Of a stretch of DNA of 64,000 bases, positions 3,757 through 21,496 are shown piece by piece. The position numbers were made by a program, and so were the translations under genes. The notes beneath the pieces are model-generated. The model had not been told where the DNA came from, searched no databases, and saw only the letters and a list, made by a program, of their open reading frames with translations. Source of the DNA: Thiohalocapsa sp. (lineage in GTDB: Bacteria > Pseudomonadota > Gammaproteobacteria > Chromatiales > Chromatiaceae); contig JAIPFF010000007.1 of NCBI GenBank assembly GCA_021736785.1, positions 1 to 64,000 on the forward strand, in the 5' to 3' direction. Position 1 is the first letter of the stretch; each line of letters opens with the position of its first letter.

Positions 3757-6570
3757 TCAGTTGCGATCGAACCGCTGGTTCATCTGGCCGTTGCATGGCC
3801 ATTGAATGATGTCGGCGCCATCGGCGGCCGATTGGCCGGAGACATCCATGCACTGTCCCGAGTGGCGGAAGCGCATTTCGCCGTTGTCGTAGGTGATCTG
3901 CTGGCTGTGGCTGCCGTTGCAGATCGACTGAACCACCTTGGCGGCGTTGGCCTGCGAGGCGCCGGCCACCGCGAGACAGAGCCCGGAATTGACCGATGTG
4001 ACCGTGTAGTAGCCGGCGCCGGCGGGCTCGAATACCCAGCGCTGGTGATCGCCGCCGGTACAGGTCCACTGGAGCACACTCGCGCCGTCTTGCATCGAAG
4101 CGCTATCGACGTCCGCGCATTTGCCTGAGTGCCGGGCCGTGAGGGTCACGGGCGACGGCGGCGGTGCGCCGTCGCAGGCCTCGAGGGTTTGCAGGTTGAA
4201 CGCGCCGGTGAGGGTCTGTCCGTCGGCGCCGACTTTGACCACGGCGCCGGCGGGCAGGGTGGCAGGATTGAAGCAGACGTCGGCGCCTTCGCCGAAGCGC
4301 AGCGCGAAGCCGTCCTGGCCGCCGCGGATGGCCTTGAGGTCGAAATCGACGGTGCCGTCGCCGGGGGTACTGTCGAGCACGTCGTTGCCCTCGAGGCTGA
4401 AGCCGTCGGTCTGCAGCGTGGCGGAGGAGGTGATCAGGCCGGCATAGGTAATGGTGCTGTCGCTGCCGCCGCCGGTGATACGCACGTTCCAGCGCTCCTC
4501 GGCGCCGGTGACGGAACAATCGCGCCAGAGGAAGACGCCGGTGTCGGTCGGGCTGGAATAGCTCGGCTCGCCGCAGGCCGGATCGCTTGGCGGCGGCGGG
4601 GGCGGCGGATCGATGGGTGGGCCGGCCGGGCCCGGCTGCAGTGTGCCGGCCTCTTGCGCGACATAGATCCCGTTTGCGACCACATCCTCGAAGCGATCGA
4701 CCCGTCCCGAAGGCCAGCGGATCTCGACGTCGGCCATCCGATTGTTGGCCAGGCCGAAGTGCAGCCGGCGGTCGTTCTGCGACCAGCGATGGTAGCCGCC
4801 GTCCTGCGCGCGGTACTGGGTCTTGCCGCCCGCGGTCACATAGACGCGCGCACCGATTCCGTCGCGGTTCGACGTGGTGCCCTCAAGCTTGATCTGCAGC
4901 CAATGGTTGGTATTGCCGTTATCGCCGGACGCGTTGCGGAACATGACGTCGGGGCCGCCGACGCCCCATGGGCGCATCAGCAGACCGTTGGTGACGAACA
5001 GATCCAGAAAGCCGTCGTTGTCGTAATCGGCGGCGGTAACGCTCTCGGCAATGCCGGCAGCGCCGCCGAGCCCGACGCCGAGCGGGCCGCGGGCGCCGGC
5101 GGCGTCGTCGACTTCGGTGAAATTGCCGGCGCCGTCGTTCAAGTACAGGCGGTTCGGGATGTTCTCGACGCCCGCCGAACAGGCCATGTAGACGTCTTGG
5201 TCCATGTCGTTGTCGAAATCGCCGACGACGACACTGTTGCAGGAGACGGGCGTGTTCAGGCCGGCGCCGTAGTCGTAGTCCCAACCGGCGGGGGAGCTTG
5301 CGATCAGCCTCGCCGGCAGGGGCAATTCGGGCCGGTCGAAACCGAAGGTTGCGATATTGCCTGCCGGCCGTTCGGTATCGATCGTCACGTACGCGCGCCG
5401 GCTGTTGCCGATGTCGTAGTCGTCGTTGACGATTTGATTGCTGATGGTCACCGTCCATTCGGCGCTGCCGCTGTCGTAGTCGACCTGGACCCACCCGGCG
5501 ACACCGGTGGTCGGCCCCGCGGGATCGAGCACGATCTGCTGGGGCTCGCCGAAGGGGCCGAGTCCGCTGAAGTCGGCCGTAACCGTGATCGTGCCGTTGC
5601 TGGTGAAGCGGAAGCCTTTGGTTTCGCTGCCGCGAATGCCGTCCAGCCAGGCCTCGATGCGGTTCGGGTTGACCAGGCCGACGCCGGAGCGGCGCATGGC
5701 GCCGCGCACCGTCAAGATGTCGCCGCGCAGGTCGCCGTTGAGATCGGCGACGATGGCATCGAGGACATTGGCGGTCGATGGCAATCGATCGCCGACATCG
5801 GTAAAGGGGCGGCTCGTCGTGTCTTCGACGGCTTCGGGAAAACGCGCTTGCCGCCCGCAGACGAGCTCGGGCGAGTTGTCGTCATCGAGATGCATCAGCA
5901 GGGCGAAATCACCCCGCCCCCGGCAATTGGAGCCGGTGCCCGTATCGCGTTGCATGTCGATTCCGCCGGCGGACGCTTGCCGGAAGAACTTCCAGCCGCC
6001 CCAGGAGACGACCGCGGCATCCAGCCGGTTGTCGCCGGTCCAGTCGAACAGGGCGGCGAAGCGCCCTACCGTGCGGTCTTGCAGTCCGGAGGCCCAGAAG
6101 ATACCGGCGTCGTTGACGAGCACGTCGCTGGAGTCGCCGGCCGTGTAGTTCCAGTTGAAGAAAAAGAAGTCTTCGTCGCCGTCGTTGTCGAGATCGCCGA
6201 ATGCCGCCCCGTGGGTGTCTGCGAGCGGGTCGGTAAACCAGCCCCCGGGCATGACGTCGGATGCGACATCGGTAAAGGTGCCGTCCGCGTTGTTGCGGTA
6301 GAGCTTCACGGGGCCGCGGTGCCCGCTGGCGAAGAGATCGGGCCAGCCGTCGCCGTTGAAGTCATTCCAGCTTGCGCCCCAGCTCTCCCCCGATCGGGTC
6401 AAGCCCGACGCGGCTGTGGCGTCCTCGAATTGCAGTTGGGCGTGAGCCGGCAGCGAGGCCAGACTCAAGGCGATCGCCGTCAGCGCCGCGTTGGCGGGGG
6501 ACAAGACGGAACGGGATGCGCGCCTATGCATCCCCCGCGGGGAGTGGTCTCGGTCGGTGTCGGTGATCAT
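3757..6570 (-). CDS. Secreted CRTAC1-like FG-GAP/ASPIC protein with ricin-type lectin tail (family member 1)
   Basis: About 937 residues. The signal peptide (1-44) ends in AHA and the mature protein begins QLQFED. Repeated FG-GAP/VCBS blades follow, with calcium-loop motifs DFNGDGWPD, DLDNDGDED, DLNGDLRGD, DFDNDMDQD and DYDNDGFLD. A beta-rich insert sits between blades, and an ASPIC/UnbV domain lies at about 557-640 (NRDGIGARVYVTAGG, WPSGRVDRFEDV). A proline linker leads to one copy of the shared 134-residue Cys module (666-799) and a ricin-type beta-trefoil (805-937) with three repeats: HQRW is intact, the other two QxW sites are altered (SQQI, NQRF). The likely role is extracellular binding of a glycan or surface. 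The start at 6570 is uncertain; 6531 is an alternative. It is the most divergent and most downstream of the five paralogues. Confidence 0.85.
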   Translation of the reverse strand: MITDTDRDHSPRGMHRRASRSVLSPANAALTAIALSLASLPAHAQLQFEDATAASGLTRSGESWGASWNDFNGDGWPDLFASGHRGPVKLYRNNADGTFTDVASDVMPGGWFTDPLADTHGAAFGDLDNDGDEDFFFFNWNYTAGDSSDVLVNDAGIFWASGLQDRTVGRFAALFDWTGDNRLDAAVVSWGGWKFFRQASAGGIDMQRDTGTGSNCRGRGDFALLMHLDDDNSPELVCGRQARFPEAVEDTTSRPFTDVGDRLPSTANVLDAIVADLNGDLRGDILTVRGAMRRSGVGLVNPNRIEAWLDGIRGSETKGFRFTSNGTITVTADFSGLGPFGEPQQIVLDPAGPTTGVAGWVQVDYDSGSAEWTVTISNQIVNDDYDIGNSRRAYVTIDTERPAGNIATFGFDRPELPLPARLIASSPAGWDYDYGAGLNTPVSCNSVVVGDFDNDMDQDVYMACSAGVENIPNRLYLNDGAGNFTEVDDAAGARGPLGVGLGGAAGIAESVTAADYDNDGFLDLFVTNGLLMRPWGVGGPDVMFRNASGDNGNTNHWLQIKLEGTTSNRDGIGARVYVTAGGKTQYRAQDGGYHRWSQNDRRLHFGLANNRMADVEIRWPSGRVDRFEDVVANGIYVAQEAGTLQPGPAGPPIDPPPPPPPSDPACGEPSYSSPTDTGVFLWRDCSVTGAEERWNVRITGGGSDSTITYAGLITSSATLQTDGFSLEGNDVLDSTPGDGTVDFDLKAIRGGQDGFALRFGEGADVCFNPATLPAGAVVKVGADGQTLTGAFNLQTLEACDGAPPPSPVTLTARHSGKCADVDSASMQDGASVLQWTCTGGDHQRWVFEPAGAGYYTVTSVNSGLCLAVAGASQANAAKVVQSICNGSHSQQITYDNGEMRFRHSGQCMDVSGQSAADGADIIQWPCNGQMNQRFDRN
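4174..4575 (-). repeat. Shared 134-residue Cys module, single copy in member 1
   Basis: 402 bp from the first Cys of CGEPSYSSPTDTGVFLWRDC to the last Cys of LQTLEAC. It has the same length and almost the same sequence as the copies in the neighbouring genes. Four cysteines are conserved: CGEP, WRDC, VCFNP and EAC. Confidence 0.9.
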
Positions 6571-6707
6571 GCGTCTATCTGATTTTTGCTTGTTTTGGCG
6601 GGTGCTCGCGCAGGCGCGGCGTCCTGCAGTTACGCCGCAGTTGGCCGATCGGCTTGCCTCGGGCGGTATTGGGTTTTCGGCGCGTCCCTGCGCCGCTGAC
6701 GTAGTGA

Positions 6708-9700
6708 TCAGGGGACGGAAACGCTGACCGAGCTCTGCTCGACGGTCACCAGCTTCAGGCATCGACCTTGATCGTCGGCGAAGACCCACGGATGGGACAC
6801 GAAGGTGCCGATGGTCGCCGTCGCGCCGGGCTGTACGAAGCCGTAGCTGACACGATTGCCGCCGTAGTTGATCCAGAACCGCTCGATGGGGATCGATGTG
6901 TTGTTGGTAACTTGGAGCGATGCGGCTTGGGAGGCGGACGTAGAGATCGCCGAGGGTTCCAGCGAGCAGCTCGGATCGCTGGGCGGCGGTGCGCCGTCGC
7001 AGGCCTCGAGCGTCTGCAGATCGAACGCGCCGCTGAGGGTTTGGCCGCTCGCGCCGACCTTGACCACGGCGCCTGCGGGCAGGGTGGTCGGGTCGAAGCA
7101 CACCGAGGCGCCGTCGGCGAAGCGCAGCGCGAAGCCGTCCTGACCGCCGCGGATGGCCTTGAGGTCGTAGTCGACGGTGCCGTCGCCTGGCGTGCTGTCG
7201 AGGACGTCATTGCCTTCGAGGCTGAAGCCTTCGGTCTGCAGCGTGGCGGAGGAGGTGATCAGGCCGGCATAGGTAATGGTGCTGTCGCTGCCGCCGCCGG
7301 TGATGCGCACGTTCCAGAGCTCCTCGGCGCCGGTGACGGAGCAGTCGCGCCAGAGGAAGACGCCGGTGTCCGATGCCCCCGTATAGCTCGGCTCGCCGCA
7401 GGCGGGGTCGCTCGGCGGCGGGGGCGGCGGGTTGTTGCAGGCGCCCAGCGTTTGCAGGTTGAACGCGCCGCTGAGGGTCTGTCCGTCGGCGCCGACTTTG
7501 ACCACGGCGCCGGCGGGCAGGGTGGCAGGATTGAAGCAGACGTCGGCGCCTTCGCCGAAGCGCAGCGCGAAGCCGTCCTGACCGCCGCGGATGGCCTTGA
7601 GGTCGTAGTCGACGGTGCCGTCGCCGGGGGTACTGTCGAGGACGTCATTGCCTTCGAGGCTGAAGCCTTCGGTCTGCAGTGTGGCGGAGGAGGTGATCAG
7701 GCCGGCATAGGTAATGGTGTTGTCGCTGCCGCCGCCGGTGATGCGCACGTTCCAGCGCTCCTCGGCGCCGGTGACGGAGCAGTCGCGCCAGAGGAAGACG
7801 CCGGTGTCGCTCGGGCTGGCGTAGCTCGGCTGGCCGCAGGCTGGATCGCCGGGCGGCGGGGGCGGCGGACCGATGGGAGGGCCGAGGGTGGTCTCCTCGA
7901 GCGCGCCGGCCTCGTTGGCGATGTAGATCCGGTCGGCGGCGACGTTGTCGAAGACATCGACTTCACCGCTCGGCCAGTAGATTTCGACACGGGCGGTCTG
8001 GTTGCCCGCCAGGCCGAAGTGCAGACGGCGGTCGTTCTGAGACCAGCGGTGATAACCGCCGCCCTGCTCGCGGTATTGGGTCACGCCGCCGGCAGTCACG
8101 TAGACGCGCGCGCCGATACCGTCGCGGTTGGAAGCGGTGCCCTGCAGATCGATCTGCAGCCAGTGGTTGTTGTTGCCGTTGTCGCCGGCTGCATTGCGGA
8201 TCAGCGTATCCCGACCGCCAACGCCCCAGGGGCGCAGCAGCAGGCCGTTGGTGATCAGCAGATCCAGGAAGCCGTCGTTGTCGTAATCGGCCGTGGTGAC
8301 GCTCTCGGCGACGCCCACATTGCTCTGCAGGCCAGCGCCGACCGGTCCCTCGGCGCCGGCTGCGCCGGCGATCAGCGTGAATCGGCCCGTGCCGTCGTTG
8401 CGGTAGAGACGGTTCGGCAGGTTATCGACGCCGGCGCCGCAGGCCATGTAGATGTCCTGGTTCATGTCGTTGTCGAAGTCGCCGGCGACGGCGCTGACGC
8501 AGGACACCGCCCCGTTGAGCCCGGCCGAGAAGTCGATCGCCAGGCCCGTCGCGGAATTCTCCAATAGTCGCGGCGGCACCGCCGTTTCGTTGCCGGCGAG
8601 GCCGAACATGGAGAGGCCGCTGACCGGCTGCGCTGTCTCGACAATGACATAGGCGCGGCGATTGTTGCCCAGCAGGGACACGGTCCACTGGCCGTTGGAC
8701 GCGTTGTAACTGGCGCTGACGTAGGGGCCGGCGTCGCCGCTGGTCGGGCCGCTCGGGCGCAGCACGATCACGTCCGGATCGGCGAAGGGGCCTAGTGGGT
8801 TGTAGTCGGCCGTCAGCGTGATCTCGCCCGGACTGGTGAAGCGAAAGCCCTTACTGCGGGTGTTGCTTGCGCCGTCGAGCCAGGCCTCGATGCGGTTGGG
8901 CGTGATCGCGGTCGCGCCGGAGGGGCGCAGCTTGCCGCGGATGGTCAGGATGTCGCTGCGCAGGTCGCCGTCGAAGTCCGCCGCGACGCTGTCGACCACG
9001 CCGGCGACCGACGGAACGCTGGCGGTGATGTCGGTGAAAGGCAGGCGGCCGATGTCGTAGGCGCCGGTCGGAAACGCCCCCTGACTGTGACGAATGAGAT
9101 CCAGTCGGCCGTCGGCATCGAGGTCGGTCAGCTGGTGGTAGTCGGTGCGCGTGCCCAGCTCGGGGATGCCGGGTGCGCTGTCGATGAAGAACGAGGGGCC
9201 GCCGCCGGGAGATTGGCGGAACAGCCGGTATCTGAAGTTACTGGTCACGCCGACGTCGAGAAAACCGTCGCCGCTGTAGTCGAAGAAGGCCGGCGCGCGC
9301 GAGTTGACGTCCTGACTGAGCCCGGAGGAGACCCCGGCGTCCCAGAACAGACCGCCGTCGTTGACCATGAGCTGTCCCTGCGCGGTCCCGCCGGCGACAT
9401 TGACATAGAGGTCTTGGTCACCGTCGTTGTCGAAATCGGCGAACGCGGCGGCGTGCTGGTCGTTATCGGGGTTCGCGAGCCAAACGCCCGGATCGACGTC
9501 GGCGGCGACGTCGGTAAAGGTGCCGTCGGCGTTGTTGCGATACAGCCTGGGGACGCCGCGGTGCACGCTCATGAAAACGTCGGACCAGCCGTCGCCGTTG
9601 TAATCGCCCCAACTGGCGCCCCAGCTCTCGCCGTTGCCGACGGTGCCGGCCGAAAGCGTTACGTCCTGAAACTGGAATTGGGCGTAGGCCGGGCCGCCCG

Positions 9701-9809
9701 GCAAAGCAGAGGCCGCAAAGGCGAGTATGGCCGCGGCGGCGGAAAAATGTCTGCCGCAGCGCGGCTGCATCGCAGCGGCGGCAGGACTGTCGGTGTGCTG
9801 TGCGTTCAT
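6708..9809 (-). CDS. Secreted CRTAC1-like FG-GAP/ASPIC protein with two Cys modules and a VHL-beta-like tail (member 2)
   Basis: 1033 residues. The start MNAQHTDSP is preceded by GGGAG on the minus strand. The signal peptide ends near PAYA and the mature protein begins QFQFQDVT. FG-GAP blades carry DYNGDGWSD, DFDNDGDQD, DFDGDLRSD, DFDNDMNQD and DYDNDGFLD loops. The ASPIC/UnbV domain spans about 547-637, two 134-residue Cys modules lie at 658-791 and 804-937, separated by a poly-proline linker, and a domain like VHL beta closes the protein (about 949-1033). Its N-terminal half is closest to member 5 (both have GESWGASWGDYNGDGWSD). It should be exported and calcium-dependent; binding partners are unknown. 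The gap to member 1 is only 137 nt and contains no convincing terminator. Confidence 0.87.
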   Translation of the reverse strand: MNAQHTDSPAAAAMQPRCGRHFSAAAAILAFAASALPGGPAYAQFQFQDVTLSAGTVGNGESWGASWGDYNGDGWSDVFMSVHRGVPRLYRNNADGTFTDVAADVDPGVWLANPDNDQHAAAFADFDNDGDQDLYVNVAGGTAQGQLMVNDGGLFWDAGVSSGLSQDVNSRAPAFFDYSGDGFLDVGVTSNFRYRLFRQSPGGGPSFFIDSAPGIPELGTRTDYHQLTDLDADGRLDLIRHSQGAFPTGAYDIGRLPFTDITASVPSVAGVVDSVAADFDGDLRSDILTIRGKLRPSGATAITPNRIEAWLDGASNTRSKGFRFTSPGEITLTADYNPLGPFADPDVIVLRPSGPTSGDAGPYVSASYNASNGQWTVSLLGNNRRAYVIVETAQPVSGLSMFGLAGNETAVPPRLLENSATGLAIDFSAGLNGAVSCVSAVAGDFDNDMNQDIYMACGAGVDNLPNRLYRNDGTGRFTLIAGAAGAEGPVGAGLQSNVGVAESVTTADYDNDGFLDLLITNGLLLRPWGVGGRDTLIRNAAGDNGNNNHWLQIDLQGTASNRDGIGARVYVTAGGVTQYREQGGGYHRWSQNDRRLHFGLAGNQTARVEIYWPSGEVDVFDNVAADRIYIANEAGALEETTLGPPIGPPPPPPGDPACGQPSYASPSDTGVFLWRDCSVTGAEERWNVRITGGGSDNTITYAGLITSSATLQTEGFSLEGNDVLDSTPGDGTVDYDLKAIRGGQDGFALRFGEGADVCFNPATLPAGAVVKVGADGQTLSGAFNLQTLGACNNPPPPPPSDPACGEPSYTGASDTGVFLWRDCSVTGAEELWNVRITGGGSDSTITYAGLITSSATLQTEGFSLEGNDVLDSTPGDGTVDYDLKAIRGGQDGFALRFADGASVCFDPTTLPAGAVVKVGASGQTLSGAFDLQTLEACDGAPPPSDPSCSLEPSAISTSASQAASLQVTNNTSIPIERFWINYGGNRVSYGFVQPGATATIGTFVSHPWVFADDQGRCLKLVTVEQSSVSVSVP
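6711..6965 (-). other. C-terminal domain resembling the VHL beta-domain
   Basis: The last ~85 residues of family member 2 match the order of landmarks in the beta-domain of the von Hippel-Lindau tumour suppressor: a strand ending in an Asn (LQVTNNTSIPIE), an aromatic strand (RFWINYGGNRVSY), PG (QPGATATIGTF), then HPWVFAD, to be compared with GHLWLFRD in human VHL. Tyr98, His115 and Trp117 of VHL appear to have equivalents. Similarity was judged by eye. The domain follows directly on the last Cys module. Confidence 0.65.
6999..7838 (-). repeat. Two tandem Cys-module copies in member 2
   Basis: Copies occupy 7437-7838 and 6999-7400, each 402 bp, with a 438-bp period. The nucleotide sequence of the WNVRITGGGS region is almost identical between them and to copies in members 1 and 3, suggesting recent duplication or gene conversion. 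Confidence 0.9.
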
Positions 9810-10311: not shown

Positions 10312-10331
10312 GGTGAGCCCCGGTGGCCGAC

Positions 10332-13300
10332 CTAGTTGCAGGCGCCGAGGGTTTGGAGATCGAAGGCACCCGCGGGCGTCTCGGCGCCGGCGCCGACTTT
10401 GACCACCGCTCCGGCGGGCAGGGTGGATGGGTCGAAGCAGACCGAGGCGCCGCCGGCGAAGCGCAGCGCGAAGCCATCCTGGCCACCGCCGACGGCCTTG
10501 AGTTCGAAGTCGACGCTGCCGTCGCCGGGGGTGCTGTCGAGGATGTCATTGCCTTCGAGGCTGAAGTCTTCGGTCTGCAGCGTGGCGGATGAGCTGATCA
10601 GTCCGGCATAGGTGATGGTGCTGGCGCTGCCGCCGCCGGTGATGCGCACGTTCCAGAGCGCCTCGGCGCCGGTGGCGGCGCAGTCACGCCAGAGGAAGAC
10701 GCCGGTGTCGCTCGGGCTGGAATAGCTCGGCTCGCCGCAGGCGGGATCGCTCGGCGGCGGTGGCGTGCCGTCGCAGGCCTCGAGGGTTTGGAGATCGAAC
10801 GCGCCGGCGACGGTCTGCCCGCCGGCACCGACCTTGACCACGGCGCCGGTAGGCAGGGTGGCAGGATCGAAGCAGACCGAGGCACCCTCGGCGAAGCGCA
10901 GTGCGAAGCCATCCTGGCCACCGCCGACGGCCTTGAGGTCGAAGTCGACGCTGCCGTCGCCGGGGGTGCTGTCGAGGATGTCATTGCCTTCGAGGCTGAA
11001 GCCTTCGGTCTGCAGCGTGGCGGAGGAGGTGATCAGGCCGGCATAGGTAATGGTGCTGTCGCTGCCGCCGCCGGTGATGCGCACGTTCCATAGCTCCTCG
11101 GCGCCGGTGACGGAGCAGTCGCGCCAGAGGAAGACGCCGGTGTCGCTCGGGCTGGCGTAGCTCGGCTCGCCGCAGGCTGGATCGCCGGGCGGCGGCGGCG
11201 GCGGGTTGTCGCAGGCGCCCAGCGTCTGTAGATCGAACGCGCCGCTGAGGGTCTGGCCGCTCGCGCCCACCTTGACCACGGCGCCGGCAGGCAGGGTGGT
11301 CGGGTCGAAGCACACCGAGGCGCCGTCTGCGAAGCGCAGCGCGAAGCCGTCCTGACCGCCGCGGATGGCCTTGAGGTCATAGTCGACGGTGCCGTCGCCT
11401 GGCGTGCTGTCGAGGACGTCATTGCCTTCGAGGCTGAAGCCCTCGGTTTGCAGTGTGGCGGACGCGGTGATCAGGCCGGCATAGGTAACGTTGCTGTCGC
11501 TGCCGCCGCCGGTAATGCGCACGTTCCAAAGCTCTTCGGCACCGCTGACGGAACAATCGCGCCAGAGGAAGACGCCGGTGTCGGTCGGGCTGGAATAGCT
11601 CGGCTCGCCGCAGGCGATGCCGCTTGGTGGCGGCTCGATGGGCGGACCGAGTGTGGTCTCCTGCAGCGCGTCGGCCTCGTTGGCGATGTAGATCCGGTCG
11701 GCGGCGACGTTGTCGAAGGTATCGACCTGCCCGGAGGGCCAGTAGATCTCGACGCGGGCGGTTTGATTGCCGGCGAGACCGAAGTGCAGGCGGCGGTCGT
11801 TCTGCACGAAGCGGTGATAGCCGCCGGCCTGCTCCAGGTATTGCGTCTTGCCGCCGGCGGTGACATAGACGCGTGCGCCGATGCCGTCGCGGTTGGAGAC
11901 GGTACCTTCCAGGTCGATCTTCAGCCAGTGGTTGTTGTTGCCGCTGTCCCCGGCGGTGTTGCGCAGCAGCACGTCGCGCCCGCCGACACCCCAGGGGCGC
12001 ATCATCAGCCCGTTCATCAGGAATAGATCCAGGAAGCCGTCGTTGTCGTAATCGGCCATGCTGACGCTTTCGCCGACACCGACGCCGCTGTCGAGGCCGG
12101 CACCGACCGGACCTTGCCAGTCGCCGGCCCCGGTGACGAGGGTGAAGGTGCCGTCGCCATTATTGCGGTACAAGCGATTCGGCAGGTTCTCGACGCCTGC
12201 GCTGCAGACCATGTAGATGTCGAGATCCATGTCGTTGTCGAAGTCGCCGGCGACCGCGCTGACGCAGGACATCGACTCGCTCAGGCCGGACGCGAAGTCG
12301 AACTCGAGTCCCGCGGCGGTCGTGGTGATCAGCCGCGGCGGCAGTCCCTGTTCGCGCGTGGTGATGCCGAACGTCTGCGGACTGCCTGCCGGCTGCGCCG
12401 TATCGACCGTGATGTAGGCGCGCCGGTTACTGGAACCGTTGCGTGTCATCGAGACAATCCATTCGCCCGCGGCGCTGTCGTAGGCGACGTCGACCCAGCC
12501 CGCGGTGCCGCTGGTGGGGCCCGCGGTGTTCAGCACCACCTGCGCGGGATCGCCGTATGCACCCAAGCCGTTATAGTCGACCGTAACGCTGACCTCGCCG
12601 GCGCTCGTGAAGCGAAAACCCTTTGAGGTCGAGGAGTCGAGGCCGTCCAGCCAGGCTTCGATCCGATTGGGGCTGATCAGCGTCGCACCCGAAGCGCGCA
12701 GCTTGCCGCGCAGCAGCAAGATGTCGTTGCGCAGATCGCCGTTGAAATCCGCGGGCACGGTTTCGATTACGTTCACCGTGGACGGGACGCTGGCGGTGAC
12801 ATCCGTAAACGGCTGGCTCGAGGTGTCGTAAGCCCGAATCGGGAACGTCGAATGGGAGGCGCAGATCAGTTCCAACGAACTGTCGCCGTTGAGGTCCAGC
12901 AGCGTCGCGTGATCGATGAAGCCCCCGACGTCGCACCCGCTGCCGTTTTCAACGTCCTCATCGAAAACGAGTCCCTGGCTCGGGATCTGCCGATAGACGC
13001 CCCAATGAGATCCGGACGGTGTGGCGAAGTCCAGGAATCCGTCGTTGTTCCCGTCGAACATCACGGCCGCGCGTGCGGTCACTCGCTCCTGCAACCCCAG
13101 CGCCCAATAAACACCCCCGTCGTTGACGAGCATTTCGCTGTCTTCGCTGCTGTACGAAGGGGCCCAGCGCGCCCAGACGAAATCGTCGTCGCCGTCGTTG
13201 TCGACATCGCCGAAGCCGGCGGCATGGGTATCCGACAATGGATCGAAAAACCAGGAGTTGTTGGGCAGGATATCGTTGGCGACGTCGGTGAAGGTGCCGT

Positions 13301-13580: not shown

Positions 13581-13720
13581 GCGTTTCTTGTCGTTATTGG
13601 TCATGTGAAAGGAAGGCCTGGCGAGCAGACGTCGGCCAGCGTCGGCGGATTGAGCAAGCAAGTAGGGTGCCAATAATTGCTTGGATGTGCGCGGGCGCGT
13701 TTCGGCCGTTCCTTGGCCAA

Positions 13721-13760: not shown

Positions 13761-16589
13761 CTAGTTGCAGGCGCCGAGGGTTTGCAGATCGAAGGCACCC
13801 GCGGGGGTCTGCGCGCCGGCGCCGACTTTGACGATGCCGCCGGCCGGCAGCGTCGTCGGGTCGAAGCAGGTCGTCGCGCCGTCGGCCACCGTGAGCCGGA
13901 ACCCGTCTTGGCCGCCGCGGATGGCCTTCAGATCGTAATCGACGGTGCCGTCACCGGGGGTGGAGTCGAGTACGTCGTTGCCCTCGAGGCTGAACGGGCT
14001 CGCGGACAGTGTCGCGGAGGACGTGACGGTGCCCGTGTAGGTAACGGTGGTGGCACTGCCGCCGCCGGTGATGCGCACATTCCAGGTCTGGTCAGGGCCC
14101 GGTGCATCGCAGTCGCGCCACACGAACACGCCGGTGTCGCTCGGGCTGGAGTAGGCCGGCGCGCCGCAGGCGACGTCGCTCGGCGGCGTGCCGTCACAGG
14201 CCTCCAGCGTCTGCAGATCGAATGCGCCGCTGCGGGTCAGTCCGCTCGCGCCGACCTTCACGACCGCGCCCGCCGGCAGCGTCGTCGGGTCGAAGCAGGT
14301 GCTCGAGCCGTCGGCCACCGTGAGCCGGAAGCCGTCTTGGCCGCCGCGGATGGCCTTCAAGTCATAGTCGACCGTGCCGTCGCCGGGGGTCGTGTCGAGC
14401 ACATCGTTGCCTTCCAGGCTGAAGGGTGTGGTCGCGAGCGTCGCGGTGGACGTGACGGTGCCTGCATAGGTGACGACGCTCGCGCTGCCTCCGCCGGTGA
14501 TGCGAACGTTCCAGGTCTGATCGGGCCCCGGGGCGTCGCAGTTGCGCCAGATGAAGACGCCGGTGTCGGAGGCGCTCGCGTAGCTCGGCGCGCCGCAGGC
14601 GGGATCGCTAGGCGGCGGCGGGGGCGGCGGCGGTCCCACCGTGGCCGGTTGCAGCGCGCCGGCCTCGTTGGCGATGTAGATCCGGTCGGCGGCGACGTTG
14701 TCGAAGGTATCGACCTGCCCGGAGGGCCAGTAGATCTCGACGCGGGCGGTTTGATTGCCGGCGAGACCGAAGTGGAGGCGGCGGTCGTCCTGCACGAAGC
14801 GATGATAGCCGCCGGCCTGCTCCAGGTATTGCGTCTTGCCACCGGCGGTGACATACACGCGTGCGCCGATCCCGTCGCGATTCGACACCGTGCCCTCCAG
14901 ATCGATTTTCAGCCAGTGGTTGTTGTTGCCGCTGTCCCCGGCAGTGTTGCGCAGCAGCACGTCGCGCCCGCCGACACCCCAGGGGCGCATCATCAGCCCG
15001 TTCATCAGAAATAGATCCAGGAAGCCGTCGTTGTCGTAATCGGCCATGCTGACGCTCTCGCCGACACCGACGCCGCTGTCGAGCCCGGCACCGACCGGAC
15101 CTTCCCAATCGCCGGCCCCGGTGACGAGGGTGAAGGTGCCGTCGCCATTGTTGCGGTACAGCCGATTGGGCAGGTTCTCGACGCCGGCGCTGCAGACCAT
15201 ATAGATGTCGAGGTCCATATCGTTGTCGAAATCGCCGGCGACCGCGCTGACGCACGAAAGCGGTTGGCTGAGCCCGGACCCGAAGTCGAACTCGAGTCCC
15301 GCCGGCGTGGTCGTGATCAGCCGCGGCGGCATGGGTCTCTCGGGATTCGCGAAACCGAATGTCCGCATATTGCTTGCCGCCTGCACCGTATCGACGATGA
15401 CATACGCGCGGCGGTTGCTTGCGCCATCGCGCGTCATCGAGACCACCCATTCGCCCGCGGCGCTGTCGTAGGCGACGTCGACCCAGCCGGCGGTGCCGCT
15501 GGTGGGTCCGGACGGTCTGACCGTCACCTGCTCGGGTGCGCCGAACGGCCCCAGGCGGTTGTAGTCGACCGTGACGGTGACCTCGCCGGCGCTACGGAAG
15601 CGAAAGCCCTTCGAATCCGAGGAAGCAAGGCCGTCGAGCCAGGCTTCGATGCGATTGGGGTTGATCAGCGTCGCGCCCGACGCGCGCAGCTTGCCGCGCA
15701 GCAACAGAATGTCGTTGCGCAGGTCGCCGTTGAAGTCGGCGGGCACGGTTTCGATCACGTTTACCGTGGTCGGGATGGTGTCGGTGATATCGGTGAACGG
15801 ACGGGTAGACGTGTCGTAGGCGCGAATCGGGAAGGTCGAATGGGAGGCGCAGATGATGTCCAAGCGGCTGTCGCCGGTCAGATCCAGCAAGGTCGCGTGA
15901 TCCTTGTAGCCGCCGGTATCGCACTCTTCGCCGTTCGCCAAGTCCTCTTCGAAGACGAGTCCCTGGCTAGGGATCTGCCGATACATGCGCCAGGGAGCGC
16001 CGGACGGCACGCTGAAGTCCAGGTAGCCGTCGTTGTTCCAGTCGAACAGCGCGGCCGAGCGGCCGGTGATGCGCTCCTGCAAACCCAGCGCCCAGTAGAC
16101 GCCGTTGTCGTTGACCAGCATGTCGCTGTTCTCGGCGCTGCTTCTGGGCGCCCAGCGGGCCCAGTAGAAATCGTCGTCGCCGTCGTTGTCGATGTCGCCG
16201 AAGCCGGCGCCGTGGGTATCCGACAGCGGGTCGGTGAACCAGGCGCTGTTCGGAAGGATGTCGTCGGCGACGTCGGTGAAGGTGCCGTCGGCATTATTGC
16301 GATAGAACCGCGGCGCGCCCCGGTGCGAGCTCATGAACAGGTCCTGCCAGCCGTCGCCGTTGTAGTCGTTCCAGCTCGAGCCCCAGCTCTCGCCCGAGCG
16401 GACGGTGCCGGCGCGCTCGGTATAGTCCTCGAACTGCAACTGGGCGGCAAACGCCGGGGCGGCCGTCGTGAGCGCGGCCAATGCCAGCGACAGTGCGGTC
16501 GGCCTTGAGCTTAAACCCCGCCGCGTTTGCTTTCCGGGCATCCGCCCGCGCGGCGGGGCAGCGGGTGTTCCTAACTTCGATGAGCTCAC
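13761..16589 (-). CDS. Secreted CRTAC1-like FG-GAP/ASPIC protein with two Cys modules (member 4)
   Basis: About 942 residues. I place the start at a GTG (16589) because GAGGG lies 7 nt before it; an ATG further in (MPGKQTRRG) is the alternative. The signal peptide ends near APAFA and the mature part begins AQLQFEDYT. The FG-GAP and ASPIC/UnbV layout matches member 3, with DYNGDGWQD, DIDNDGDDD, DFNGDLRND and DFDNDMDLD loops. Two 134-residue modules (665-798 and 808-941) end the protein. Its modules belong to a PGPDQTWNVRI variant shared with member 5 rather than the TGAEELWNVRI type of members 1-3, although the rest of the protein resembles member 3. This suggests a mosaic history. Confidence 0.86.
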   Translation of the reverse strand: MSSSKLGTPAAPPRGRMPGKQTRRGLSSRPTALSLALAALTTAAPAFAAQLQFEDYTERAGTVRSGESWGSSWNDYNGDGWQDLFMSSHRGAPRFYRNNADGTFTDVADDILPNSAWFTDPLSDTHGAGFGDIDNDGDDDFYWARWAPRSSAENSDMLVNDNGVYWALGLQERITGRSAALFDWNNDGYLDFSVPSGAPWRMYRQIPSQGLVFEEDLANGEECDTGGYKDHATLLDLTGDSRLDIICASHSTFPIRAYDTSTRPFTDITDTIPTTVNVIETVPADFNGDLRNDILLLRGKLRASGATLINPNRIEAWLDGLASSDSKGFRFRSAGEVTVTVDYNRLGPFGAPEQVTVRPSGPTSGTAGWVDVAYDSAAGEWVVSMTRDGASNRRAYVIVDTVQAASNMRTFGFANPERPMPPRLITTTPAGLEFDFGSGLSQPLSCVSAVAGDFDNDMDLDIYMVCSAGVENLPNRLYRNNGDGTFTLVTGAGDWEGPVGAGLDSGVGVGESVSMADYDNDGFLDLFLMNGLMMRPWGVGGRDVLLRNTAGDSGNNNHWLKIDLEGTVSNRDGIGARVYVTAGGKTQYLEQAGGYHRFVQDDRRLHFGLAGNQTARVEIYWPSGQVDTFDNVAADRIYIANEAGALQPATVGPPPPPPPPSDPACGAPSYASASDTGVFIWRNCDAPGPDQTWNVRITGGGSASVVTYAGTVTSTATLATTPFSLEGNDVLDTTPGDGTVDYDLKAIRGGQDGFRLTVADGSSTCFDPTTLPAGAVVKVGASGLTRSGAFDLQTLEACDGTPPSDVACGAPAYSSPSDTGVFVWRDCDAPGPDQTWNVRITGGGSATTVTYTGTVTSSATLSASPFSLEGNDVLDSTPGDGTVDYDLKAIRGGQDGFRLTVADGATTCFDPTTLPAGGIVKVGAGAQTPAGAFDLQTLGACN
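13767..14597 (-). repeat. Two tandem Cys-module copies in member 4
   Basis: Copies lie at 14196-14597 and 13767-14168, each 402 bp, with a 429-bp period. Both carry the PGPDQTW and FRLTVADG variant of the module. Confidence 0.9.
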
Positions 16590-16615
16590 GCGATTTCCCT
16601 CGTTTTCGATCGGTG

Positions 16616-17015: not shown

Positions 17016-17034
17016 GGCGGGCGGGTCGCCCGCC
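17016..17034 (-). terminator. Hairpin after member 5
   Basis: GGCGGGCG at 17016-17023 pairs perfectly with CGCCCGCC at 17027-17034 around a 3-nt loop, 14 nt past the stop at 17048. There is no T-run. Confidence 0.5.
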
Positions 17035-17047
17035 GTGCTCGCCGTTA

Positions 17048-20000
17048 TTACAGTTGCCGGATTTGCACGTCGTCGATGCCGGCCTCGACCAAAGATCCGG
17101 AGTCCGCGTCGGCGGCCTCGATCACCAGCCGAACCGTCTGTCCGGCAAAGGCAGAGATGTCGACCGTGAAGTCTGTCCACTCGGCCGTGCGGATCGTGTC
17201 GCTGGCACGCTCGTTCAGCAGGACCGTACCGCCGGAGCTGCCCTGTACGGTAATGCGCAGGAAGTCGTCGGGGGTCGCATTGGAAAGATGCGCCAGGTAG
17301 TAGCTCAAGCTCAGGGAAACAGGACGGCCGCTCGGCAGCGTAATGGCCGGCGAGCGAATGGAGACCGTGCCGCCGTCGATGTCGGCGAAACCGACGCCGA
17401 AGTCGGCGTCCGCTTCCAGGCCCGTGATCAAGGCATTTGCTCCCGTTCGGGCATTCTCCGGCTGCATGACGTTGCCATTGTCGTCGGCGGTGCCTTGCGG
17501 ATCGCCGATCTCCCACGCACCCGTCGTAGCGGTGTCGGACCCGTTCGGGTTCGAGACCCAGCCCGAGGACGACTCGAAGCCGTCGAAGAATAGCGTCAGC
17601 GGGCCATCGGAATCGGTGACGGTGACGGTGCCGACGCCGGTACCGATCGTCGCGTTGGACGGATTGCTCAGGCGCACGCGGAAGTTCTCGGTGTCCTCGG
17701 GCACCGCGTCGTCGACAATGGCGACGGTCACGGTGCGGCTGGTTTGCCCCGCACCAAAGCTCAGCGTTCCGCTGTCGGCGGTGTAGTCGCTGCCGGCGCT
17801 CGCCGAGCCGTTCTCGGTGGCGAAGTCGACGCTGACCGTTGTCGTGCTTGCGCTCGACAATGTCACCGTCAATGTCGCGCTGCCGGCGGACTCGTCCACC
17901 GTCACGCTGTCGATCGACAGGCTCGGCGTCGCCGGCGGCGGGGTGCTGCCGCAGGCCTCGAGCGTCTGCAGGTCGAACGCGCCGTCGACGACTTGGCGGA
18001 CGGCGCCGATCTGCACCGTGGCCCCGGTGGGCATGGTGGACGGGTCGAAGCAGGTGGTTGACCCGTCGGCGACGGTCAGCGCGAAGCCGTCCTGGCCGCC
18101 GCCGATGGCCTTCAGCTCGTAATCGACGTCGCCGTCGCCGGGCGCGCTGTCCAGCACATCGTTGCCTTCGAGGCTGAAGCCTTCGGTCTGCAGCGTGGCG
18201 GAAGAAGTGATGAGGCCGGCATAGGTGATCAAGCTGCCGCTGCCGCCGCCGGTAATACGCACGTTCCAGCGCTGGTCCGGCCCCGCCGCGTCACAGTCGC
18301 GCCACAGGAACAGACCGGTCTCGGACGGGCCGGAGTAGCTCGGCTCGCCGCAGGCGACGCTGCTCGGCGGCGGCGTGGTGCCGCAGGACTCCAGGGTTTG
18401 CAGGTCGAACGCGCCGGTGACGGTCTGTCCGCCGGCGCCGACTTTGACAACGCCGCCTGCCGGCATCGTGGACGGATCGAAGCACGTACTTGCGCCGTCC
18501 GGGACAGTCAGGCGGAAGCCGTCCTGGCCGCCGCGGATCGCCTTGAGGTCGTAATCGACGATGCCGTCTCCGGGCACGCTGTCGAGCACGTCGTTGCCTT
18601 CGAGACTGAAGCCCGAAGTCTGCAGTGTGGCCGACGAGGTGATCAGGCCCGTATAGGTGATGGTGCTGTCGCTGCCGCCGCCGGTGATGCGCACGTTCCA
18701 CACCTGATCGGGTCCGGCGGCGGTGCAGTCGCGCCAGACGAAGACGCCGGTGTCGGTCGGGCTGGAATAGCTCGGCTCGCCGCAGGCGGGATCGCCCGGG
18801 GCGCTGTCGTCGTTGTCGGCGATGGTTACCGTCGCACTGGCCTGCCCGAGGATGGCGTTCACCGGGCTCGACAGGTTGACGGTGAATGTCTCGTTCGACT
18901 CTTGCGCCGTGTCGTCGAGGATCGGCACGCCGGCGGTGGCCGAGGTGCTGCCGGCAGGGATGGTGATTTGCTGTGACACTGCGGTGTAGTCGTCACCCGC
19001 GGTGGCGCTGCCGTCGGCGGTGCTGTAGGTCACCGTCACGGGTACGGCGGCCGCGGCCGACAGGGTCAGGGTCAGCTCGGCACTGCCGTCGCCTTCGCCG
19101 ACGCTCGCGTCCGCGATGCTGACCGTGGCCGTCGGCGTGCACACGCCCAGCGTCTGCAGATCGAACGGCGCCGAGACCGGATGCGCGGCTCGGCCGATCA
19201 ACAGCGATGCCCCGGGCGGCGCGCTCAGCGCAACACAACCGCTGGCGGAGGACGGCAGCGAGAAGTCGACGCCGTCGAGGCCGGCATTGACCACACGTAA
19301 GCTGAAGTCGAGCGTGCCCGGCGTCGAGGTGTCGACGACGTCGCTGCCCTCGAGGCTGAAGCCGCTCACGTTCGAGAAGCTGCCGTTGGAGGTGATGCTG
19401 CCCTGGTAGAGGATCGCACTGGAACTGCCGCCGGCACTGACGCGGGAGAACCAACGATTGGCGCTGCAATCCTTCCACAGCCACAGGCCCGCGATGTTGG
19501 CGGCGTCGATGTTCGGTGCGCCGCATTCGTCGCCCGGCGAGAGCTGGTCTTCGATGGGCGGACCGAGGGTGGTCTGAACCAGCTGCCCACCCTCGTTGGC
19601 GGTGTAGATGACGTTTGCGCCGACGTTGTCGAAGACGTCGACCCGCCCGGACGGCCAGCGGATCTCGACACGGGCGCTCTGGTTTTGCGCGAGACCGAAG
19701 TGCAGCCGGCGGTCGTTCTGGGACCAGCGGTGATAGCCGCCGCCCTGCTCCTGGAATTGAGTCACGCCGCCGGCGGTGACGTAGATGCGGGCACCGATGC
19801 CGTCGCGGTTCGATGCCGTGCCCTGCAGGTCGATCTGCAGCCAGCGGTTGGTATTGCCGCTGTCGCCCGCGGTATTGCGGATCAGGGTGTCCTGACCGCC
19901 GATACCCCAGGGGCGCATCAGCAGGCCGTTGGTCACCAGCAGATCCAGGAAGCCGTCGTTGTCGTAGTCGCTGGTGGTGACGCTCTCCGCCACGCCGACG

Positions 20001-21496
20001 CCGCTCTGCAGGCCGGCACCGACCGGGCCGCGAGCGCCGGCGGCGTCGGCCACGAGCACGAAGCGGCCGTTGCCCTGGTTTTCGTAGAGGCGGTTGGGCA
20101 GGTTCTCGACACCGGCACCGCAGGCCATGTAGATGTCCTGATCCATGTCGTTGTCGAAGTCGCCGGCAACCGCGCTGACGCAGGCCACCGCGCCGTTCAG
20201 CCCGGCGCCGAAATCGAAGGCGAAGCCGGAGCCGTTGTCTTTGATCAGCCGCGGCGGGACCGGCACTTCGGTGTTGGCGAGGCCGGTCATGCGCAGGTTA
20301 CTGACCGGTTGAGCGGTCTCGACGACGATGTAGGCGCGCTGGTTGTTTCCGATCATCGAGACCACCCACTCGCCGGCGCTGCTGTTGTAGCTGACGCTGA
20401 CGGAGTCCGCGCTGCCGCTGGTCGGGCCGGACGGGCTCAGCACCAGCTCGGCGGGAGCGCCGAAGGGGCCGAGTCCCGAGTAGTCGATGGTAAAGGTCGT
20501 GGTGCCGGGGCTGGCGAACCGAAAACCCTTCGCGCTGGTGTTGCTGGCGCCGTCGAGCCAGGCCTCGATGCGGTTGGGCGTAATCGCCGTTGCGCCGGAC
20601 GGACGCAGCTTGCCGCGGATGGTCAGGATGTCGCTCTTCAGGTCGCCGTCGAAGTCGGCGACGACGCTGTCGACGACACTGGCGGTCGCCGGCAAGATAC
20701 CCGAGACGTTCGGAAACGGGCGCGAAGTAACGTCATGAGCCGCGGCCGGGAAAGTGCCCTGGTTCTGGCAGATGAATTCCTGCACGCCGTCGCCGTCGAG
20801 GTCGATGAGCTGGGTGTAGTCGGTGCGGCGCGGGCAGACGTTGCCGGTCGTGGTGTCGGCGTCGAAATCCAGGCCCTGTGCCGGATCCTGGCGGTCCATC
20901 TGGTAGCCGCTCACCGAGGTCACGGCGACGTCCAGGAAGCCGTCGTCGGTCCAATCGAAGAAGGTCGGCGCGCGCGCGGTGGAGTCGCCGTCCAAGTCGG
21001 CGTCGACCGCTGCTTCCCAGAACAGGCCGCCGTCGTTGATCAGCAGTTGGCCGGGCCCGCTGGAGCTGACGCTGACGTAGAGGTCTTGGTCGCCGTCGTT
21101 GTCGAAGTCGGCGAAAGCGGCGCCGTGCTGGTCGTTGAGGGGGTCGTTGAACCAGATGCCGGGATCGAGCTCGATGGCGACATCCGTGAAGGTGCCGTCG
21201 GCATTATTGCGATAGAAGCGCGGCACGCTGCGATGGGTGGTCATGAAGATATCGGACCAGCCGTCGCCGTTGTAATCGCCCCAGCTCGCGCCCCAACTTT
21301 CGCCGGTGCCGACCGTGCCTGCGCTCAGCGTGACGTCTTGGAACTGCAGTTGTGCGTGTGCAGGGACGCCGGCCAACGCCAGTGCAAATAACGCCGGTGC
21401 GGCGAGCATGGCGGATACCGATCGCGTCGATGATGCCGTTGGGCCGTGGTGGGTGGTCGGGAGAAGTGCCTCGTGCCGTGCTGCCGTCTTGTCCAT
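17048..21496 (-). CDS. Secreted CRTAC1-like FG-GAP/ASPIC protein with Cys modules, two Calx-beta domains and a MAM-like tail (member 5)
   Basis: 1482 residues, the largest paralogue. The signal peptide ends near VPAHA and the mature protein begins QLQFQDVT. FG-GAP loops (DYNGDGWSD, DFDNDGDQD, DFDGDLKSD, DFDNDMDQD) and an ASPIC/UnbV domain are followed by a degenerate Cys module (658-786). A Calx-beta domain comes next (about 787-895: GSATAGDDYT, DDTAQESNETFTV), then two full modules (905-1038, 1049-1182), a second Calx-beta domain (about 1190-1298: GSASAGSDYT, DDAVPEDTENFRV) and a jelly-roll domain of the MAM/CBM type (about 1300-1482: FFDGFESSSGW, GIDDVQI). Calx-beta domains bind calcium and occur in adhesins. 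This is the most upstream family member; the N-terminal half is nearest to member 2. Confidence 0.87.
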   Translation of the reverse strand: MDKTAARHEALLPTTHHGPTASSTRSVSAMLAAPALFALALAGVPAHAQLQFQDVTLSAGTVGTGESWGASWGDYNGDGWSDIFMTTHRSVPRFYRNNADGTFTDVAIELDPGIWFNDPLNDQHGAAFADFDNDGDQDLYVSVSSSGPGQLLINDGGLFWEAAVDADLDGDSTARAPTFFDWTDDGFLDVAVTSVSGYQMDRQDPAQGLDFDADTTTGNVCPRRTDYTQLIDLDGDGVQEFICQNQGTFPAAAHDVTSRPFPNVSGILPATASVVDSVVADFDGDLKSDILTIRGKLRPSGATAITPNRIEAWLDGASNTSAKGFRFASPGTTTFTIDYSGLGPFGAPAELVLSPSGPTSGSADSVSVSYNSSAGEWVVSMIGNNQRAYIVVETAQPVSNLRMTGLANTEVPVPPRLIKDNGSGFAFDFGAGLNGAVACVSAVAGDFDNDMDQDIYMACGAGVENLPNRLYENQGNGRFVLVADAAGARGPVGAGLQSGVGVAESVTTSDYDNDGFLDLLVTNGLLMRPWGIGGQDTLIRNTAGDSGNTNRWLQIDLQGTASNRDGIGARIYVTAGGVTQFQEQGGGYHRWSQNDRRLHFGLAQNQSARVEIRWPSGRVDVFDNVGANVIYTANEGGQLVQTTLGPPIEDQLSPGDECGAPNIDAANIAGLWLWKDCSANRWFSRVSAGGSSSAILYQGSITSNGSFSNVSGFSLEGSDVVDTSTPGTLDFSLRVVNAGLDGVDFSLPSSASGCVALSAPPGASLLIGRAAHPVSAPFDLQTLGVCTPTATVSIADASVGEGDGSAELTLTLSAAAAVPVTVTYSTADGSATAGDDYTAVSQQITIPAGSTSATAGVPILDDTAQESNETFTVNLSSPVNAILGQASATVTIADNDDSAPGDPACGEPSYSSPTDTGVFVWRDCTAAGPDQVWNVRITGGGSDSTITYTGLITSSATLQTSGFSLEGNDVLDSVPGDGIVDYDLKAIRGGQDGFRLTVPDGASTCFDPSTMPAGGVVKVGAGGQTVTGAFDLQTLESCGTTPPPSSVACGEPSYSGPSETGLFLWRDCDAAGPDQRWNVRITGGGSGSLITYAGLITSSATLQTEGFSLEGNDVLDSAPGDGDVDYELKAIGGGQDGFALTVADGSTTCFDPSTMPTGATVQIGAVRQVVDGAFDLQTLEACGSTPPPATPSLSIDSVTVDESAGSATLTVTLSSASTTTVSVDFATENGSASAGSDYTADSGTLSFGAGQTSRTVTVAIVDDAVPEDTENFRVRLSNPSNATIGTGVGTVTVTDSDGPLTLFFDGFESSSGWVSNPNGSDTATTGAWEIGDPQGTADDNGNVMQPENARTGANALITGLEADADFGVGFADIDGGTVSIRSPAITLPSGRPVSLSLSYYLAHLSNATPDDFLRITVQGSSGGTVLLNERASDTIRTAEWTDFTVDISAFAGQTVRLVIEAADADSGSLVEAGIDDVQIRQL
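17951..18784 (-). repeat. Two full Cys-module copies in member 5
   Basis: Copies lie at 18383-18784 and 17951-18352, each 402 bp, with a 432-bp period. They are of the AAGPDQ variant and lie between the two Calx-beta domains. Confidence 0.9.
19139..19525 (-). repeat. Degenerate Cys-module copy in member 5
   Basis: 129 codons aligning end to end with the 134-residue module: CGAP at the start, LWLWKDC, GFSLEGSDVVD, then SGCVALS and FDLQTLGVC at the end. The four cysteines are kept although most other positions differ, so it is the most diverged copy and useful for defining the invariant core. Confidence 0.8.

What the first reader, a model, noticed from the sequence alone, without database searches (positions are those of the whole stretch)
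3757..21496. Five tandem secreted CRTAC1-like giants with interchangeable tails
Five adjacent same-strand genes (937-1482 codons) share a signal peptide, FG-GAP calcium loops and an ASPIC/UnbV domain, but differ after it: ricin lectin, VHL-beta-like domain, three Cys modules, two Cys modules, or Calx-beta plus MAM-like. Constant export and scaffold parts with swapped C-termini look like a diversified surface-recognition or adhesion system. I know of no described system with this layout; that is recall, not a search.
Basis: partly seen in the sequence, partly recalled or inferred. Interest (0 to 1): 0.82.

Follow-up and report, generated by a model that had tools for sequence, protein, structure and literature searches.

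The report
Recombining exopolysaccharide-linked propeller protein array
Five neighbouring genes in a probable purple sulfur bacterium make large exported proteins that share a propeller-shaped body, carry an undescribed four-cysteine module, and appear to have traded tails; relatives of the proteins often sit beside genes for making slime polysaccharide, so they are probably biofilm glue proteins.

Summary
Five adjacent minus-strand genes (3757-21496) encode leader, FG-GAP propeller and UnbV_ASPIC cores with variable C-termini. One correction: the tails are not five unrelated ones. Every protein carries, right after ASPIC, the same ~134-aa four-cysteine module (1-3 copies), which no Pfam or NCBIfam model was found to cover. 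Only the terminal cap differs: ricin lectin, VHL-beta, none, none, or Calx-beta plus a choice-of-anchor-J-like end.

The five cores form one clade (lineage-specific tandem expansion). Modules follow a different tree from the cores (AU tests), so tails were exchanged within the array. The core models as CRTAC1; the module models confidently as an all-beta fold with weak hits to cellulose- and collagen-binding domains.

Relatives are patchy: module in 12 of 210 family genomes (own included), in 0 of 9 congeners. The module is also fused to sulfatase, GHL15 and pectate-lyase-like proteins; 21 of 42 module/core loci hold exopolysaccharide genes, against 0 of 28 comparison loci.

Best reading: secreted, polysaccharide-retained matrix adhesins, working like Vibrio Bap1/RbmC 'double-sided tape' but not members of that family. 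Binding and export are untested, and the window array has no such polysaccharide genes nearby.

The parts
3757..6570 (-). g1: leader, CRTAC1-like core, one four-Cys module, ricin-B lectin cap (937 aa)
3769..4149 (-). ricin-type beta-trefoil lectin domain of g1
   Evidence: PF00652 E 2.8e-22, PF14200 E 3e-26
4174..4575 (-). four-Cys module g1m1
4642..6438 (-). FG-GAP/UnbV_ASPIC core of g1
6708..9809 (-). g2: core, two four-Cys modules, VHL-beta cap (1033 aa)
6768..6923 (-). VHL beta domain of g2
   Evidence: PF01847 E 2.6e-7, above cut-off
6999..7400 (-). four-Cys module g2m2
7437..7838 (-). four-Cys module g2m1 (95% DNA identity to g1m1)
7896..9680 (-). core of g2
10332..13604 (-). g3: core and three four-Cys modules (1090 aa)
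10338..10739 (-). four-Cys module g3m3
10773..11174 (-). four-Cys module g3m2 (the one modelled)
11211..11612 (-). four-Cys module g3m1
11661..13454 (-). core of g3
13761..16541 (-). g4: core and two four-Cys modules (926 aa)
13767..14168 (-). four-Cys module g4m2
14196..14597 (-). four-Cys module g4m1
14649..16442 (-). core of g4 (modelled with both modules)
17048..21496 (-). g5: core, divergent module, Calx-beta, two modules, Calx-beta, choice-of-anchor-J-like end (1482 aa)
17060..17353 (-). choice-of-anchor-J-like (MAM-like) C-terminus of g5
   Evidence: NF038128 E 0.0016, below its cut-off
17606..17911 (-). second Calx-beta domain of g5
   Evidence: PF03160 best stretch
17951..18352 (-). 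four-Cys module g5m3
18383..18784 (-). four-Cys module g5m2
18797..19129 (-). first Calx-beta domain of g5 (limits by eye)
   Evidence: two Calx-beta stretches reported; translation
19139..19525 (-). divergent four-Cys module g5m1
19577..21352 (-). core of g5

Best explanation
The five genes are a lineage-specific tandem family of exported matrix proteins. Each has a calcium-loop FG-GAP/ASPIC propeller of CRTAC1 type followed by one to three copies of a new four-cysteine all-beta module, and some carry an extra cap (ricin lectin, VHL-beta, Calx-beta plus choice-of-anchor-J-like). Most likely mechanism: the Sec pathway exports them, a type II system takes them out, one end (module or propeller) is held by a self-made, probably sulfated, exopolysaccharide, and the other parts bind neighbouring polymers, cells or surfaces, so that the set of paralogues glues or tunes the extracellular matrix. 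Homologous recombination between array members redistributes modules among cores. Shown: architecture, clade, tail exchange, module fusion to polysaccharide-acting enzyme families, exopolysaccharide loci in relatives. Inferred: crossing of the outer membrane, polysaccharide binding, adhesion.
For: Core models as CRTAC1 (9etn, Foldseek E 1e-22, TM 0.70 on the target); integrin alpha X is next (E 1.3e-8). Module model has pLDDT 95.9; best, weak, matches are the C. fimi cellulose-binding domain 1exg and the CNA and ACE collagen-binding adhesin domains (E 0.003-0.008). Of 19 module proteins without the core that I scanned, 8 match GHL15, 7 CBM_4_9, 2 sulfatase and 1 pectate-lyase-like. Wza/Wzz/Wzx/sulfotransferase homologues lie in 21 of 42 module/core loci (18 of 39 without the three loci that gave the queries) and in 0 of 28 comparison loci. 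Poly_export lies within 20 kb of modules on 7 of 35 module contigs, about 0.9 expected. A genome met later, from another family (G583), has giants inside a Wza-Wzz-sulfotransferase-Wzx cluster. Tail exchange: the core topology is rejected by modules (AU p 2e-4) and the module-best topology by cores (AU p 5e-12); g1-g2 third-position identity is 0.58 in cores and 0.90 in modules. A GspD above cut-off is in the own genome.
Against: The window array has none of the exopolysaccharide-class genes looked for (eight query proteins) in its 64 kb nor in the next 20 kb; it sits by polA, an NRPS-like gene and a dihaem cytochrome gene. Of six own module loci two have such genes (C95, C25); the two fragments at contig ends (C82, C14) do not. 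Half of all module/core loci lack them. The module's fold matches score E 0.003 at best with TM about 0.5 or less, and beta-sandwiches are common. T2SSL (PF05134) was not found in the own genome, so the type II route rests on GspD alone. Cores are under purifying selection. No binding or localisation data exist.
Confidence: 0.55

Rival explanations
1. The propeller proteins are secreted or periplasmic accessory factors of polysaccharide processing (substrate-presenting scaffolds or unrecognised enzymes), not adhesins; the modules tether them to their substrate as carbohydrate-binding modules tether glycosidases.
For: The module is fused to sulfatase, GHL15 and pectate-lyase-like families; glycosidase propellers appear in the fold list (7byx, 3nqh).
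Against: The best fold match is CRTAC1, not an enzyme; none of the 10 Pfam families listed for the 32 giants looks catalytic; lectin and VHL caps suggest binding.
Confidence: 0.17
2. Recognition proteins aimed at other cells (partner, prey, phage or kin recognition), with recombining tails creating new specificities.
For: Tail exchange; ricin-lectin and VHL caps found in no other of 32 giants; fastest core window at codons 100-200, where pN approaches pS in g1-g2 and g2-g5 (no test); absence from 9 congeners.
Against: No toxin or anchor domain among the Pfam matches; the relatives' Pfam matches differ mainly in Calx-beta (20 of 32); dN/dS well below 1 over whole cores in four pairs.
Confidence: 0.13
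3. Extracytoplasmic redox or metal-associated proteins, like the single ASPIC protein of this genome that by eye lies beside multihaem cytochrome and TPR genes (contig C63).
For: C63 neighbourhood by eye; a dihaem cytochrome gene adjoins the array at 2799-3509; L059 holds a cytochrome/TPR protein near its giant; a CRTAC1-family gene lies beside hydrazine synthase-like genes in a paper (PMC12758564, one passage read).
Against: The five giants are only 23-32% identical to the C63 protein; the module fusions point to polysaccharide.
Confidence: 0.08
4. Passive products of tandem duplication and gene conversion with no special array function.
For: Gene conversion between neighbours is expected for tandem copies; g3 and g4 are 90-97% identical in DNA near ASPIC.
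Against: All five frames are open, cores are under purifying selection in the four pairs examined, and tandem pairs recur in other genera.
Confidence: 0.07

Closest known systems
Vibrio cholerae biofilm matrix adhesins Bap1 and RbmC
   Same: Exported proteins with FG-GAP beta-propeller and variable extra domains; the propeller binds the cells' own exopolysaccharide and the other domains bind surfaces ('double-sided tape', passages of PMC10102183; FG-GAP domains, passages of PMC3161981).
   Different: Here the scaffold is CRTAC1/ASPIC type with a four-Cys module; no beta-prism family among the Pfam matches; five tandem recombining paralogues instead of two; binding untested.
CRTAC1 / ASPIC-UnbV family
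   Same: FG-GAP plus UnbV_ASPIC, sequence and fold match to murine CRTAC1 9etn.
   Different: Longer (926-1482 aa against 586 in the 9etn chain), with C-terminal four-Cys modules, Calx-beta, lectin or VHL caps; by eye also a stretch without calcium loops between two FG-GAP blocks (not tested).
Carbohydrate-binding modules of secreted glycosidases (e.g. CBM2)
   Same: Compact all-beta module, tandem copies, attached to polysaccharide-acting enzyme families; 1exg is the top fold match.
   Different: No sequence family match, four conserved cysteines, weak structural score; sugar binding untested.
Integrin alpha-type propellers in bacteria
   Same: FG-GAP propeller with calcium loops; bacterial seven-blade cases described (PMC3192720, abstract and outline read).
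   Different: Best fold match is CRTAC1, not integrin; the integrin motif was not tested.

Membership tests
CRTAC1 / ASPIC-UnbV family | UnbV_ASPIC domain above curated cut-off | tested here: met
   5 of 5 window proteins above cut-off; 32 of 32 giants at E<=0.001
CRTAC1 / ASPIC-UnbV family | FG-GAP propeller with CRTAC1-like fold | tested here: met
   9etn E 1e-22, TM 0.70 on target
CRTAC1 / ASPIC-UnbV family | EGF-like calcium domain of animal CRTAC1 (feature recalled) | tested here: not met
   no EGF match at E<=0.1 in the Pfam scan of the five proteins; so bacterial ASPIC branch, not animal CRTAC1
Bap1/RbmC matrix adhesins | FG-GAP beta-propeller in an exported protein | tested here: met
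   leader peptide by eye
Bap1/RbmC matrix adhesins | beta-prism lectin domain | tested here: not met
   no such Pfam match; no Bap1 among the 50 fold matches shown of 1867
Bap1/RbmC matrix adhesins | binding of the cells' own exopolysaccharide | not testable with these tools
   only indirect: gene neighbourhoods and fusions
Carbohydrate-binding module | membership of a known CBM sequence family | tested here: not met
   0 CBM matches in 12 modules (Pfam); 0 NCBIfam matches in 89 modules
Carbohydrate-binding module | CBM-like beta-sandwich fold | tested here: inconclusive
   1exg E 0.003, TM 0.43/0.50; a collagen-binding domain scores the same
Type II secretion substrate | T2SS genes in the producer | tested here: inconclusive
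   GspD above cut-off; T2SSL not found

The most novel reading that the evidence does not exclude
The array is a tail-swapping matrix adhesin system: an undescribed four-cysteine polysaccharide-binding domain marks proteins that must stay in a sulfated exopolysaccharide of purple sulfur bacteria and some other gammaproteobacteria (propeller adhesins, sulfatases, glycosidases, lyases), and recombination among tandem propeller genes re-assorts these binding tails, so that each lineage builds its own matrix glue.
Probability: 0.3. Interest if true: 0.8.

Novelty: new variant of a known kind. Interest (0 to 1): 0.62.

Why it matters
If true, it names a new domain family that gives a sequence handle on exopolysaccharide-bound proteins of purple sulfur bacteria and a lucinid-type symbiont, whose matrix proteins are, as far as I know (recalled), little studied. 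It also bears, for a second and unrelated protein family, on the question raised in PMC10102183 (passage read) whether the 'double-sided tape' design of Bap1/RbmC is general. The tail exchange makes it testable whether matrix proteins evolve by shuffling binding modules.

Tried and rejected
Five unrelated tails: rejected, since one module is common to all. Chance likeness of repeats: rejected by identities and tree. Plasmid carriage: 12 plasmid records match, none over 80% of the query; the ten listed match only the core region at 28-37% identity. A conserved island at polA: downstream of polA differs by eye in the 6 congeners read, and no giant was seen there (two searches found none in these genomes). 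Positive selection over whole cores: not seen in four pairs. Hidden paralogy as the sole cause of module/core disagreement: unlikely, as third-position identity of modules (0.90) far exceeds that of cores (0.58) for g1-g2; the AU test used g5m2 as the g5 row because g5m1 is divergent, modules are paralogous, and the SH test is weaker (p 0.03 for the core topology on modules; two topologies not rejected on cores), so the test is not perfectly clean. Absence of a type II system: suggested by T2SSL, then weakened by GspD.

Mended control: I had put three loci among the ten controls that bear a core (G072 C31), a module fragment (own C82) or an ordinary ASPIC gene (own C63), and had left out G078 C4 and own C14, which bear cores. 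I fetched 20 contig starts by a fixed rule (contigs 5, 55, 105, 155, 205 of four module-bearing genomes; ten are 9 kb or longer, 180 kb in all) and recounted: 0 of 20; polA loci 0 of 6; own C8 64-84 kb and C63 0 of 2. The four moved or added module/core loci have no hit, so 21 of 38 became 21 of 42.

Limits: contig ends cut several own copies (C41, C32, C14, C82), so copy number is a lower bound; one search scored at most 20 candidates a genome, so module contigs may be missing; the gene caller for neighbourhoods is a greedy longest-ORF script and misses genes (e.g. the Poly_export gene of G221:C166 that one search lists); some of the 42 loci are orthologous or share a genome, and the queries came from three of them (G201 C134, own C95, L. 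purpurea C201), so counts are not independent. The 19 proteins leave out short or split module frames (L134, L141, L066) and those found later (L161-L163). Literature searches listed nothing that describes such arrays or the module; two searches showed only 20 and 10 of very many papers, and the library is open-access only.
Full report
What is there. The window is the first 64 kb of a 132-kb contig (C8) of a 5.2-Mb genome. Five genes on the minus strand lie between a dihaem cytochrome gene (2799-3509, DHC E 2.4e-29) and a DNA polymerase I gene (polA, 21889-24591, named by eye from its translation): g1 3757-6570, g2 6708-9809, g3 10332-13604, g4 13761-16541, g5 17048-21496. Each has an N-terminal hydrophobic leader (by eye), FG-GAP_3 and UnbV_ASPIC above the Pfam cut-offs and 3-5 calcium-loop-like motifs by a loose pattern.

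The tails. Right after ASPIC every protein carries a ~134-residue module with four cysteines (C1, C20, C101, C134), two tryptophans and a DG pair. Copies: g1 one, g2 two, g3 three, g4 two, g5 three, of which one is divergent. Four Cys are kept in 82 of 89 modules (six of the other seven lack the first column), W29 in 83, D65 and D88 in 88. Of 12 modules scanned, one has a Pfam match, at E 0.027 to a trimerization domain, which I take as chance; 0 of 89 match NCBIfam; the PDB sequence search gives nothing below E 0.029. Caps then differ: ricin lectin (g1), VHL (g2), none (g3, g4), Calx-beta and a choice-of-anchor-J-like end (g5). By eye, the giant of Lamprocystis purpurea (L063) has nearly the same order as g5, ending included, with one module fewer.

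Relatives in the same genome. The core is found at 11 places, two of them fragments at contig ends (C8 five, C32 three, C95, C41, C14); an ordinary ASPIC protein lies on C63, by eye beside multihaem cytochrome and TPR genes. The module is found at 27 places, also in a protein with a PF12708 pectate-lyase-like domain (C37) and in one on C25 that resembles the GHL15-type proteins (48% to L058's) and lies 1 kb from a Poly_export gene.

Distribution. The polA protein is 77% identical to that of Thiorhodococcus minor and 73% to Lamprocystis, against 59-69% for the other six genomes compared, so the host is probably a member of the Chromatiaceae (inference; the genus is not known). The module is in 12 of 210 family genomes and 9 of 61 genera, own genome included, and in 0 of 9 congeners; it is in 3 of 369 genomes drawn from the class, own included. 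The core at E<=1e-20 is in 10 of 93 relatives, own included, several only as partial matches, and in no congener. A scan of named genomes gave 13 loci, among them Thiodiazotropha, Lamprocystis and Thiorhodococcus. Downstream of polA the six congeners that could be read differ from the window.

Evolution. In an ML tree of 33 cores the five window genes form a 100/100 clade, with (g2,g5) and (g1,(g3,g4)); C32b, C95 and C41 form another. The DNA of the cores supports ((g2,g5),(g3,g4),g1), with all 14 other topologies at AU p<=6e-4, though the SH test does not reject two of them. First typical modules reject this topology (AU p 2e-4, SH p 0.03); their best is ((g2,g3),(g4,g5),g1), and several others are not rejected. 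g1 and g2 share 95% of module DNA and 67% of core DNA; at third positions 0.90 and 0.58. g3 and g4 reach 90-97% near ASPIC but 72-77% in the modules. So segments have moved between array members, most simply by recombination or gene conversion. Whole-core dN/dS is 0.22-0.44 in four pairs; codons 100-200 have the highest pN in each (no significance test).

Structure. The module model is confident (pLDDT 95.9, pTM 0.90) and all-beta. The top matches are a cellulose-binding domain and collagen-binding adhesin domains, with no match at E<=0.001. The g4 model (mean pLDDT 84.9, pTM 0.72) matches CRTAC1 (9etn) far above all else (E 1e-22, next 1.3e-8).

Context in relatives. Module proteins without the core (19 scanned) match GHL15 in 8, CBM_4_9 in 7, sulfatase in 2, Calx-beta in 2, pectate-lyase-like in 1 and NHL repeat in 1. 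Neighbours confirmed by Pfam include Poly_export/SLBB, Wzz, Polysacc_synt flippase, sulfotransferases, sulfatase and PF12708. With phmmer from eight such proteins, 21 of 42 module/core loci (708 kb) hold Wza, Wzz, Wzx or sulfotransferase homologues; three of these gave the queries, leaving 18 of 39. Of 28 comparison loci (296 kb: 20 contig starts taken by rule, six congener polA loci, own C8 64-84 kb and own C63), 0 do. Poly_export genes lie within 20 kb of modules on 7 of 35 module contigs; 41 genes in 65.3 Mb predict about 0.9 (my arithmetic, rounded genome sizes, contig ends ignored). G583, from another family and first met after the idea was formed, holds two giants in or beside a Wza-Wzz-sulfotransferase-Wzx run and a third about 8 kb before it; another G583 stretch with a module protein (L161) has none of these genes. 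Against this, the window and its next 20 kb hold none of these genes, nor do C41 and C32.

Tandem copies elsewhere. Adjacent core genes occur in L097, L126/L127, L128, L131, L133 and L142, so tandem copies recur in other genera, as pairs whose visible difference is module number in most; Calx-beta is in 20 of 32 giants, ricin and VHL in one each.

How it probably works. The gene fusions and loci say that the module belongs with secreted polysaccharide. The simplest mechanism is retention: module or propeller binds the exopolysaccharide, caps bind something else. Bap1 and RbmC of V. cholerae work so, with the propeller bound to VPS (passages of PMC10102183). These proteins would work like them but are not members: ASPIC core, no beta-prism match. 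Export by type II secretion is possible, since GspD is present above cut-off, but T2SSL was not found.

Novelty. Six literature searches listed no description of tandem CRTAC1-like arrays with such tails or of the module; a soil acidobacterium has an ASPIC/UnbV gene in a table of paralogues (PMC3174227, passages). I call it a new variant of a known kind (modular matrix adhesins), built from an undescribed domain. The recount of the control did not change my odds.

Noticed in passing
24625-31017 (-): A gene for an NRPS-like protein (AMP-binding two stretches, PP-binding two, condensation, thioesterase) lies just upstream of polA on the same strand.
   Followed up: no
31178-32038 (+): A reading frame that by eye looks like a piece of a group II intron reverse transcriptase, suggesting past mobile-element activity near the array.
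   Followed up: no
34130-35686 (+): A frame that by eye resembles a Fic or AbiEi-type protein.
   Followed up: no
L012:1-7928 (own C32): Second tandem array of three giants (first cut by the contig end) whose tails carry another repeated domain ('ASLFNISTRA...'), 90-92% identical between genes: a second case of homogenised tails on diverged cores.
   Followed up: partly
L125-L127 (G201:C134): A 56-kb stretch with about ten module- or core-bearing frames around Wzx, Wzz, Wza and sulfotransferase genes; looks like a large sulfated-exopolysaccharide locus.
   Followed up: partly
L099:6183-8174 (G078:C4): A core without module, with a lipobox-like start by eye, in what by eye is a glycosyltransferase cluster, in another family; no hit to the four polysaccharide classes counted.
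   Followed up: partly
L148 (G007:C1): Downstream of polA in a congener lie genes that look by eye like a CRISPR-Cas locus and its repeats.
   Followed up: no
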